Positions 2,971 to 5,270 of a stretch of DNA of 64,000 nucleotides are shown piece after piece. Each line of letters starts with the position of its first letter. The stretch's first letter is position 1. The translations under genes and the position numbers were made by a program. The notes under the pieces were generated by a model. That model made no database searches. It was given only the letters and a program-made list of their open reading frames with translations, and had not been told where the DNA came from. The stretch is from Caloramator sp. E03 (GTDB lineage: Bacteria; Bacillota; Clostridia; Clostridiales; Caloramatoraceae), in the NCBI RefSeq assembly GCF_006016075.1, contig NZ_CP040093.1:868001-932000 (forward strand). Reading direction: 5' to 3'.

Positions 2971-3936
2971 TTAAATAACTTTAAATATATCCTTTTTTAT
3001 CTTTTTAAACAAAGCTGGATAGTGCATTGTAATTGTTTTATTTTCAAGATATTTAAGGCTATTGGGGCAGTTTACAAATATCAACTTATAAGCTATAAGG
3101 AGTTGATTTGAAAGACCATACTTATTAAAAAAGAAACTATTTAATTTTTTATCTCCATACTTAGGATCACCTAATATAGGATTCCCAAGCCATGATAGAT
3201 GTGCTCTTATTTGATGGCTTCTACCAGTAATCAGGTCTATATCAATATGTGAAAATTGTCCAACGCTTTCTATATTAATAATTTTAGTTTCAATTTTTTT
3301 TGAGTTTTTAATATAATCCCTGCTTATTACAGATTTGTTTGTTTTATTATCTTTTAATATGTATGCACTATAGGTATCATCTTTTATTTTTCCTTTTACA
3401 ATTGCAGTATAGTATTTTTTAACATTTCCATCTCTAATCATTTCATTTATTGCCTTCAAAGTTTCATAGTTTTTTGCAAATATAACAAGTCCAGATGTAT
3501 TTCTATCAAGTCTATTACAAGGCGAAGGTGAAAAAGTAACTTCTTTATTTGGGTTATATTCCCCTTTATCATAAAGATAAGCTAAAACCATATCAGTTAA
3601 AGTTATATCTTCTCCTTCATCAGGATGAACAAGAGTATCTGTTCCCTTTATAACAACCAATAAATTCTCATCTTCATAAGCCGTATCTATGCTATAATCT
3701 ATATTTAAAAATTTTAATTTTTTATTTTCTTTTTTAGCTTCAACTTCAAAATTAAACCTAATAATATCTCCTTCTGATAATAAGTATTTCTCACTTGATT
3801 TATTTCCATTTACAGTTATTTCTTTTTTTCTAATGGCTTTGTAAATTGTTCCAAGTGGCATATCCTTTAAGTATTTTCTTAAAAACCTATCAAGCCTTTG
3901 TCCTGCTTCATTTGCTTTAATAACTATCTCATTCAT
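2971..3936 (-). CDS. RluA-family pseudouridine synthase
   Basis: An S4 RNA-binding domain opens the protein (GQRLDRFLRKYL) and a RluA-type catalytic domain follows, with the signature RLDRNTSGLVIFAK whose Asp is the nucleophile, and GRSHQIRAHLSWLGNPILGD near the C-terminus. It isomerises uridine in rRNA or tRNA; which position cannot be told. I use the ATG at 3936, six bases after AGAGGG; a longer frame to 4038 would add a spurious hydrophobic extension and run back into the preceding terminator. Length is about 321 residues, normal for RluD/YlyB-type enzymes. The gene stands alone between two terminators. Confidence 0.9.
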   Translation of the reverse strand: MNEIVIKANEAGQRLDRFLRKYLKDMPLGTIYKAIRKKEITVNGNKSSEKYLLSEGDIIRFNFEVEAKKENKKLKFLNIDYSIDTAYEDENLLVVIKGTDTLVHPDEGEDITLTDMVLAYLYDKGEYNPNKEVTFSPSPCNRLDRNTSGLVIFAKNYETLKAINEMIRDGNVKKYYTAIVKGKIKDDTYSAYILKDNKTNKSVISRDYIKNSKKIETKIINIESVGQFSHIDIDLITGRSHQIRAHLSWLGNPILGDPKYGDKKLNSFFFNKYGLSNQLLIAYKLIFVNCPNSLKYLENKTITMHYPALFKKIKKDIFKVI

Positions 3937-4008
3937 ACGCATCCCTCTTTTATTTTTATTTTTCTTTATAATGATATATTCAATAAAAAATATAGTCAAT
4001 AAAAACAA

Positions 4009-4030
4009 AGGCCTGCTTAAAAACAGGCCT
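4009..4030 (-). terminator. Terminator of the HesB-like selenoprotein gene
   Basis: On the minus strand AGGCCTG and CAGGCCT enclose an eight-base loop and are followed by a T-rich tract. The stem starts at the stop codon of the HesB-like gene (4029). Confidence 0.8.
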
Positions 4031-4328
4031 ATCTGCACGTATTAGTACTATAAAGTTGTTCAACTGAGAAACCTTTACCAAAGAAGGAATTTCTATAGTC
4101 AATTACAAAACCTTTAGTATACATAGCTATATCTTTGTCTAATAATACTTTTATTCCATTTACCTCATATACTTCATCATCATTTTTCTGCTCATCCAGA
4201 GCTATTCCAAGCCTTGGACCACCTCATCCAATACCTGCGATATATATCCTTACACCATAATTTGAACTTTTTTGTTTAAGTTTATCTTTTAACACTTTAG
4301 CTGCTGAATCTGTTATTCTAATCTCCAT
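4029..4328 (-). CDS. HesB/IscA-like protein with in-frame UGA: probable selenoprotein
   Basis: The frame from ATG 4328 to TAG 4029 gives 99 residues with one in-frame TGA, codon 35 (4226-4224). The context is AGIG-U-GGPRLGIALDE. IscA/HesB Fe-S proteins have a conserved cysteine in exactly this GxGCGGP motif, and a selenocysteine form of the HesB-like family is described in bacteria. Homology is continuous on both sides of the TGA, which argues against a decayed gene. Directly 3' of the UGA the RNA can form an 8-position stem (CCAAGGCU with AGCUCUGG, one A-C mismatch and one G-U) capped by UGGAAU, with G in the second loop position as expected for a bacterial SECIS. A strong promoter precedes it and a terminator follows. 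Neighbouring mrp (4443) is also an Fe-S gene. No selA, selB, selC or selD lies in the window. RBS GGAGG precedes the ATG. Confidence 0.88.
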
Positions 4329-4345
4329 ATCCATACCTCCATTTC

Positions 4346-4392
4346 TATACCCCGTATAGGTATATTATAGTATATCTAAAACGAAGTTTCAA
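4346..4392 (-). promoter_or_regulatory. Sigma-A promoter with CsoR/CstR-like palindrome, upstream of the HesB-like gene
   Basis: On the minus strand TTGAAA (4392-4387), a 17-base spacer and TATAAT (4369-4364) form a near-consensus promoter. Immediately downstream and touching the -10 box lies TATACCCCGTATAGGTATA (4346-4364, plus-strand reading), whose outer halves TATACC/GGTATA are exact inverted repeats. C-rich/G-rich palindromes of this type are bound by CsoR/CstR-family repressors; that assignment is inference. Confidence 0.6.
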
Positions 4393-4442
4393 GTCATAGA
4401 TAGAAGATTAGCAACATTCATCAGCCTAGTATTAGTTTTCCC

Positions 4443-5270
4443 TTATTTATTAATCTTATTTATTATTTCGTCCACAATTCCTTTAAAATCCTCCTTCAGT
4501 TTCCCAAAAAGTTCAACTCTTCCCTCATCAGAGAGCTCCATTAAATCTTTATCAAGTGGTAATTCTCCTAAAAGGTCTATTCCTAATTTTTCAGAAGCCT
4601 TCTTTGCAGCATTTTCTCCAAATATCTCTATTTTTTTATTGCATTCAGGACAAATTATATAGCTCATATTCTCTATAACTCCTAAAACGCTTACATCCAT
4701 TTTTTTAGCCATATCAATTGCCTTTGAAACTATCATTGATACAAGGTTTTGAGGAGTTGAAACCATTAAAATACCAGTAACAGGTATTGATTGCATCACC
4801 GTTAAAGGTACGTCACCTGTTCCAGGAGGCATATCAACTATTAAGTAATCTAAATCACCCCATATTACATCTGTCCAGAACTGTTTAACAGCACCAGCAA
4901 TAAGAGGCCCTCTCCAAAGCACAGCCTGTTCTTCATAATCTGTAAGAAGATTCATAGACATTACATAAACCCCTGTAACACTTTCAGCTGGAAATATCCC
5001 TTCCTCCGTTATTTCCACACCTTTTTTAGTTATTCCAAAGAGCCTTGGAATACTTGGACCTGTTATATCTGCATCAAGTATTCCAACTCTAAAACCTCTA
5101 TCTTTAAGTTCACAGGCAATCAAAGAGGATATCGTTGATTTACCTACACCTCCTTTTCCACTCATTACAGCAATTACATTTTTTACTTGATTTAATGGGT
5201 TGTTTTCAATCATACAATTATCTTGTTTATTACACTTTGAGTTTGATGGGCAACTCTTACAATCTGCCAA
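4443..5270 (-). CDS. mrp: Mrp/NBP35-family Fe-S cluster carrier ATPase
   Basis: The deviant Walker A GKGGVGKST sits near residue 40, followed by the MinD/Mrp signatures GILDADITGPS and DYLIVDMPPGTGD. CPEC at about residue 210 is the CxxC pair that holds a bridging Fe-S cluster in the dimer. The N-terminus carries four more cysteines (CKSCPSNSKCNKQDNC), as in clostridial NBP35-like forms. The product would receive and hand on Fe-S clusters in the cytoplasm, which fits the adjacent HesB-like gene. The start is a TTG (5270), nine bases after GGAG; no ATG in frame is placed better. Length 275 is normal. Confidence 0.92.
   Translation of the reverse strand: MADCKSCPSNSKCNKQDNCMIENNPLNQVKNVIAVMSGKGGVGKSTISSLIACELKDRGFRVGILDADITGPSIPRLFGITKKGVEITEEGIFPAESVTGVYVMSMNLLTDYEEQAVLWRGPLIAGAVKQFWTDVIWGDLDYLIVDMPPGTGDVPLTVMQSIPVTGILMVSTPQNLVSMIVSKAIDMAKKMDVSVLGVIENMSYIICPECNKKIEIFGENAAKKASEKLGIDLLGELPLDKDLMELSDEGRVELFGKLKEDFKGIVDEIINKINK

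What the first reader, a model, noticed from the sequence alone, without database searches (positions are those of the whole stretch)
4029..4328. HesB/IscA-like selenoprotein with UGA at the cluster-binding cysteine
The sequence shows one in-frame TGA (codon 35) exactly where HesB/IscA proteins carry the conserved Cys of GxGCGGP, with homology continuous on both sides and a hairpin right after the UGA with a G in the apical loop. A HesB-like selenoprotein family is known, so this is a member rather than a new class, but an automatic caller would split or drop it. The loop begins only about 14-15 bases after the UGA, slightly closer than typical. The adjacent Mrp-type carrier suggests a Fe-S or persulfide handling pair.
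Basis: partly seen in the sequence, partly recalled or inferred. Interest (0 to 1): 0.85.

Follow-up and report, generated by a model that had tools for sequence, protein, structure and literature searches.

The report
Selenoprotein of the HesB/IscA family
An apparently broken small gene is a complete selenium-containing HesB/IscA-type protein of a known family; its recoding hairpin can now be placed exactly, and a repressor site at its promoter hints that the cell makes it when reactive sulfur builds up.

Summary
Window 4328-4029 (minus) is one 99-codon gene with a TGA at codon 35, exactly where HesB/IscA proteins carry their first conserved Cys. It passes the cut-off of TIGR01911 (HesB-like selenoprotein). 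Its genome has selA, selB, selD (itself with an in-frame TGA) and tRNA-Sec. Fifteen of 17 genomes of its family carry the orthologue, always with TGA; in 89 distinct homologues the codon is TGA in 59 and TGT/TGC in 30.

The covarying element is GCUC-UGGAU-GAGC at 4202-4190, its loop 25 nt after the UGA, inside the published 16-37 nt range. All four pairs form in 56 of 59 TGA genes but in 1 of 30 Cys genes.

New here: the gene has its own promoter, with a palindrome (ATACC-N7-GGTAT) near the -10 box in 14 of 15 orthologues, fitting the published TAC-N9-GTA operator of CsoR/CstR repressors. Five similar sites in the genome precede trxA-trxB, a CoA-disulfide reductase/rhodanese with TusA-DsrE2, and Fe-S/zinc-ribbon genes. 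I predict a persulfide-responsive (CstR-type) regulon. The Mrp neighbour is conserved mainly within the genus.

The parts
4029..4328 (-). hesB-like selenoprotein gene, 99 codons plus TAG; start ATG at 4328
   Evidence: RBS GGAGG at 4340-4336 read directly
4224..4226 (-). in-frame TGA, codon 35, selenocysteine (motif UxGP)
   Evidence: TGA in 59 and TGT/TGC in 30 homologues at this column
4190..4202 (-). bacterial SECIS element GCUC-UGGAU-GAGC, apical loop 4198-4194, loop 25 nt after the UGA
   Evidence: covariation; absent from Cys homologues; 16-37 nt rule from PMC13188914
4364..4392 (-). sigma-70-type promoter-like site TTGAAA-17-TATAAT, 11 of 12 consensus bases
   Evidence: a consensus match; best of the region; position fits the operator and RBS
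4347..4363 (-). palindrome ATACCTATACGGGGTAT, predicted CsoR/CstR-family operator (TAC-N9-GTA)
   Evidence: operator rule from PMC3902906
4009..4030 (-). intrinsic terminator overlapping the TAG stop
4443..5270 (-). neighbouring Mrp/NBP35-type Fe-S carrier ATPase; linkage conserved mainly within the genus
2971..3950 (-). downstream RluA-type pseudouridine synthase; near the gene in all 15 orthologous loci but not always in the same orientation, so not an operon partner

Best explanation
Shown by sequence: the gene encodes a 99-residue HesB/IscA-type (A-type carrier fold) protein in which a UGA at codon 35 takes the place of the first conserved Cys codon, and the cell has the whole machinery to read it as Sec. 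Mechanism (established for bacterial selenoproteins, applied here): when the UGA is in the ribosome, SelB with Sec-tRNA-Sec binds the small hairpin GCUC-UGGAU-GAGC whose loop lies 25 nt downstream, Sec is inserted, and the remaining 64 codons are read to the TAG. Inferred (about 0.5): the gene is its own transcription unit, repressed by a CsoR-family regulator of the CstR kind that sits on the palindrome after the -10 box and leaves when persulfides rise. Inferred further (about 0.35): the product uses Sec35 and its C-terminal Cys98 to hold or move sulfur or an Fe-S cluster, working with thioredoxin, glutaredoxin and ferredoxin-type partners to protect or repair Fe-S or thiol chemistry under reactive sulfur. 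The confidence given is for the selenoprotein and its recoding element.
For: Selenoprotein: family models; selA, selB, selC, selD with TGA; TGA kept in 15 of 17 family genomes; 59 Sec vs 30 Cys at one column; loop G in 58 of 59 vs 0 of 30; four stem pairs in 56 of 59 vs 1 of 30; Leu codon CTG in 53 of 59 although CTG is 2.2% of Leu codons in the window; 6 of 7 pairs with two-sided changes, 0 of 500 shuffles reach the covariation score; purifying selection after the TGA; IscA/SufA/ErpA relatives in the PDB; model pLDDT 88. Regulation: 57 (palindrome in 14 of 15 orthologues and in L003, L011, L012); 74 (it stays near the -10 box even in L067, where it lies 76 nt from the ATG); 59, 62, 64, 71-73 (the 6 G-tract sites of the genome are all intergenic and upstream of genes, the 15 others all inside ORFs); 68 (PMC9405070: CstR controls the CoA persulfide reductase); 60, 67, 73 (His-less two-Cys CsoR-family protein); 75, 76 (the polyferredoxin that bears this operator here lies directly downstream of hesB-U in L003 and L019, followed by a glutaredoxin).
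Against: No protein-level or expression evidence. The window's SECIS stem is only 4 bp (-5.8 kcal/mol alone), weaker than the published -7.5 limit, and a longer hairpin competes in the free RNA. Binding of the regulator was not shown; for the non-hesB genes the regulon rests on one genome, and the regulator gene has no such site upstream. Copper-sensor CsoR sites in the literature also fit TAC-N9-GTA. Nothing here shows what Sec35 does.
Confidence: 0.95

Rival explanations
1. Functional rival: ordinary A-type Fe-S carrier in partnership with Mrp; the Sec simply replaces a cluster ligand and the protein passes clusters between IscU and Mrp or apo-enzymes, with no special link to reactive sulfur.
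For: IscA fold and family; Mrp adjacent upstream on the same strand in 3 genomes and downstream in L011.
Against: Own promoter, operator and terminator; Mrp adjacent in only 3 of 15 orthologous loci; the genome has IscU with a separate Cys-type HesB paralogue about 2 kb away at 555 kb, which would be the housekeeping partner.
Confidence: 0.35
2. Regulatory rival: the operator belongs to the copper regulator CsoR, so the selenoprotein is a copper-stress protein that keeps Fe-S assembly going.
For: The genome has a true CsoR (with His and two Cys) beside copA; CsoR sites also follow TAC-N9-GTA (PMC3902906).
Against: The csoR-copA promoter carries a different, longer C/G-rich site (CCCCCTCCCCAATAGGGGTAGG), and none of the six palindromes lies before a copper gene; the set holds sulfur-transfer and thioredoxin genes.
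Confidence: 0.15
3. The TGA is a true stop and the gene is a pseudogene or makes a 36-residue peptide.
For: A standard caller ends the ORF at 4224.
Against: TGA and downstream frame kept in 15 genomes with dN far below dS; SECIS covariation; complete Sec machinery.
Confidence: 0.02

Closest known systems
HesB-like selenoprotein family (TIGR01911 HesB_rel_seleno; Zhang et al. 2006, PMC1794560; review PMC13188914, motif UxGP)
   Same: Family model, Sec position, UxGP motif, full Sec machinery in the host
   Different: Nothing essential; this lineage has a short C-terminus with one or two Cys in place of the longer GGCxxCxxC-like tail seen in Romboutsia and several other Clostridia
HesB-like selenoprotein of Methanococcus maripaludis (MMJJ_08070; PMC11097638)
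   Same: Same family name; there the selenoprotein was identified by mutagenesis and 75Se labelling; function unclear
   Different: Archaeal; disruption there gave no nitrogen-fixation defect (unpublished observation cited in that paper)
A-type carriers IscA/SufA/ErpA (PDB 1r94, 1s98, 2d2a, 2apn)
   Same: Fold and position of the first conserved Cys
   Different: Sec for that Cys; the C-terminal Cys pair is reduced to Cys98
CstR persulfide regulon of Enterococcus/Staphylococcus (PMC9405070, PMC5480029)
   Same: CsoR-family two-Cys regulator without the copper His; CoA persulfide reductase/rhodanese in the set
   Different: Sites scattered over the genome and not beside the regulator; includes a selenoprotein and thioredoxin; binding not tested

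Membership tests
HesB-like selenoprotein (TIGR01911) | Score above the curated cut-off | tested here: met
   71.6 vs 66.35 bits; the NCBIfam model NF038090 IscA_HesB_Se scores 75.9 vs cut-off 85, so that one is not reached
HesB-like selenoprotein (TIGR01911) | In-frame TGA at the first conserved Cys, followed by xGP | tested here: met
   GIG-U-GGP; column shared by 89 homologues
HesB-like selenoprotein (TIGR01911) | Bacterial SECIS with G in the first two loop bases, 16-37 nt from the UGA | tested here: met
   UGGAU loop, 25 nt; free energy of the bare 4-bp hairpin is weak
HesB-like selenoprotein (TIGR01911) | Host has selA, selB, selC, selD | tested here: met
HesB-like selenoprotein (TIGR01911) | Sec present in the protein | not testable with these tools
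   needs 75Se labelling or mass spectrometry
Canonical A-type Fe-S carrier (IscA/SufA/ErpA) | Three-Cys ligand set (first Cys plus C-terminal CxC) | tested here: not met
   First Cys is Sec, C-terminus has Cys98 only; equivalog cut-offs of IscA, SufA and ErpA not reached
CsoR/CstR-family operator | TAC-N9-GTA inverted repeat with G-tract at the promoter | tested here: met
   rule from PMC3902906
CstR regulon | A CstR-type regulator binds the site and responds to persulfide | not testable with these tools
   candidate regulator L158:2223-2486(-) found, binding not shown

The most novel reading that the evidence does not exclude
The HesB-like selenoprotein, whose role has stayed unclear since its discovery, belongs to a persulfide-sensing CstR-type regulon together with the thioredoxin system, a CoA-disulfide (persulfide) reductase/rhodanese with TusA-DsrE2, a polyferredoxin and (in relatives) a glutaredoxin, so that its selenol most likely works on sulfane sulfur or on Fe-S centres damaged by it.
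Probability: 0.5. Interest if true: 0.65.

Novelty: new member of a known kind. Interest (0 to 1): 0.45.

Why it matters
As a selenoprotein it is one more member of a family known since 2006. What is useful is the exact SECIS of the clostridial members, supported by covariation, and a concrete lead on function: a conserved repressor site ties the gene to reactive sulfur. My paper search found no relevant text linking HesB to CstR. If true, a selenoprotein of unknown function becomes testable by a simple induction experiment.

Tried and rejected
Rfam: no hit over 3900-4500. Plasmid collection: only relatives under 60% identity, Fe-S assembly proteins of the ordinary kind where annotated. Mrp as a conserved partner: not outside the genus, apart from L011. 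RluA-type pseudouridine synthase: near the gene in all 15 loci but with changing orientation, so no operon. CsoR/copper reading of the operator: different site at csoR-copA. Searches failed on coordinates and were repeated.

Full report
What is there. On the minus strand, 4328-4029 reads as 99 codons with a single TGA at codon 35. The start at ATG 4328 has GGAGG 7 nt upstream. Pfam Fe-S_biosyn matches residues 1-98 without a break at the TGA, and NCBIfam TIGR01911, HesB_rel_seleno, is reached with 71.6 bits against 66.35. A terminator lies on the TAG stop.

The genome reads UGA as Sec. The window lies in a 2.98 Mb single-contig genome. It holds selA, selB, a tRNA-Sec of 69.9 bits, confirmed by ARAGORN with anticodon tca, and selD, all within 269.5-274.0 kb on one strand. 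selD itself has an in-frame TGA in TEASG-U-AAKIG. All 17 genomes of the family have selA.

The TGA is old and kept. A search of 60 related genomes found orthologues with one TGA throughout the family. I read 15 of them, from 15 of the 17 genomes in the family, all with TGA at the same codon. Selection on amino acids continues after the TGA: for the window against L066, dN/dS is 0.18/1.05 before and 0.20/1.02 after. Across 89 distinct homologues the codon is TGA in 59 and TGT or TGC in 30. That Sec/Cys alternation is the standard evidence for selenocysteine.

The minimum-energy fold starts right after the UGA, with its loop 14-15 nt away, but in 25 aligned sequences it shows no more covariation than shuffles. 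Further 3' is GCUC-UGGAU-GAGC (4202-4190). There, 6 of 7 aligned pairs change on both sides, and none of 500 shuffles reaches the covariation score. In the 59 TGA genes the four pairs next to the loop are complete in 56 and the loop has G at its second base in 58; in the 30 Cys genes the figures are 1 and 0. The Leu codon that holds this G is CTG in 53 of 59, although CTG makes up 2.2% of Leu codons in the window. The sequences are related, so these counts are not independent events, but the compensatory pairs (GC/AU/UA types in one stem) are hard to explain otherwise. The loop starts 25 nt after the UGA, inside the published 16-37 nt range (PMC13188914). In the window the stem is short, 4 pairs and -5.8 kcal/mol by itself, a weak point of this particular copy.

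The protein. A model from 19 aligned sequences has mean pLDDT 88.4 and the beta-sheet/helix order expected for the family; the solved relatives found by sequence include IscA and SufA entries. Invariant positions are M1, R27, U/C35, G37, G41, D45 and D51. The C-terminal Cys pair of canonical A-type carriers is reduced to Cys98 here. So the gene is a member of the HesB-like selenoprotein family but not of canonical IscA, SufA or ErpA.

Surroundings. Mrp (4443-5270) precedes the gene on the same strand, but only in the three genomes of the genus; a Mrp-type gene follows the gene in L011, and in L012 one lies further downstream. The genome also has IscU with a Cys-type HesB paralogue about 2 kb from it, and no SufB/D. 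That paralogue is the likelier housekeeping carrier (inference).

A repressor site. Upstream there is a promoter-like site TTGAAA-17-TATAAT, directly followed by ATACCTATACGGGGTAT (4363-4347). The palindrome ATACC-N7-GGTAT (last base A in some) is found in 14 of 15 orthologues and in the distant L003, L011 and L012. In L067, where it lies 76 nt from the start codon, it is still next to a -10-like box, so it follows the promoter and not the ribosome site. It matches the TAC-N9-GTA inverted repeat with G-tract that CsoR-family repressors need (PMC3902906). In this window the G-tract form occurs once, against 0.02 expected.

The regulon. The loose pattern WTACC-N7-GGTAW occurs 21 times in the genome, against 15 for the reversed control. 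The 15 sites without a G-tract arm are all inside ORFs; the six with one are all intergenic and upstream of a gene. They precede hesB-U; trxA-trxB; a CoA-disulfide reductase with rhodanese domain followed by a TusA-DsrE2 protein; a NapH-like polyferredoxin; a small 4Fe-4S ferredoxin; and an FmdB-type zinc ribbon. If the two properties were unrelated, so perfect a split would have a probability of 1 in 54,264 (my arithmetic; the split was noticed after looking). In Enterococcus the persulfide sensor CstR controls the CoA persulfide reductase (PMC9405070). This genome has a CsoR-family protein with Cys residues but Tyr in place of the copper His (L158:2223-2486), and a true CsoR beside copA whose promoter has a different site. 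Independently, the same NapH-like polyferredoxin (57% and 44% identity) lies just downstream of hesB-U in L003 and L019, followed by a glutaredoxin.

Conclusion. Selenoprotein and SECIS: near certain, by sequence. CstR-type control: likely but unproven (about 0.5). A job in sulfane-sulfur or Fe-S repair chemistry: my best guess, inferred from company kept (about 0.35). In the literature the family is known since 2006 (PMC1794560), a Methanococcus member was identified with 75Se labelling but its function is unclear (PMC11097638), and no relevant held paper joins HesB with CstR. The protein is a new member of a known kind.

Noticed in passing
L030 / L099 (G000:C1:273115-274032, minus): selD of the same genome is itself a selenoprotein gene (TEASG-U-AAKIG), in a selD-selA-selB-selC cluster.
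   Followed up: yes
L009, L013, L014, L036, L053, L056, L103: Tandem HesB pairs in Clostridia: a TGA copy beside a Cys copy. The Cys copy of L014 keeps a 4-bp stem but has lost the loop G (a SECIS remnant); the TGA copy of L036 has lost the loop G and may be decaying.
   Followed up: partly
L003:5502-6267, L019:5284-6157, L006:5263-5556, L007:5302-5556: NapH-like polyferredoxin and/or glutaredoxin genes directly downstream of HesB selenoprotein genes in distant Clostridia.
   Followed up: partly
L100:4077-6203, L101: A second HesB selenoprotein paralogue in family genomes lies beside an ArsR-type regulator and an SBF-family transporter, which may suggest an arsenic setting.
   Followed up: no
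L104:3159-3794: Two further divergent HesB-like genes with in-frame TGA (one reads NV-U-QGP; in the other the TGA is shifted by a codon in the alignment).
   Followed up: no
L069, L100, L101, L102 (group B loci): HesB-like TGA genes with an FG-U-GGP or FG-U-AGP motif and a very short C-terminus ending in CC or CCC, a separate subgroup.
   Followed up: no
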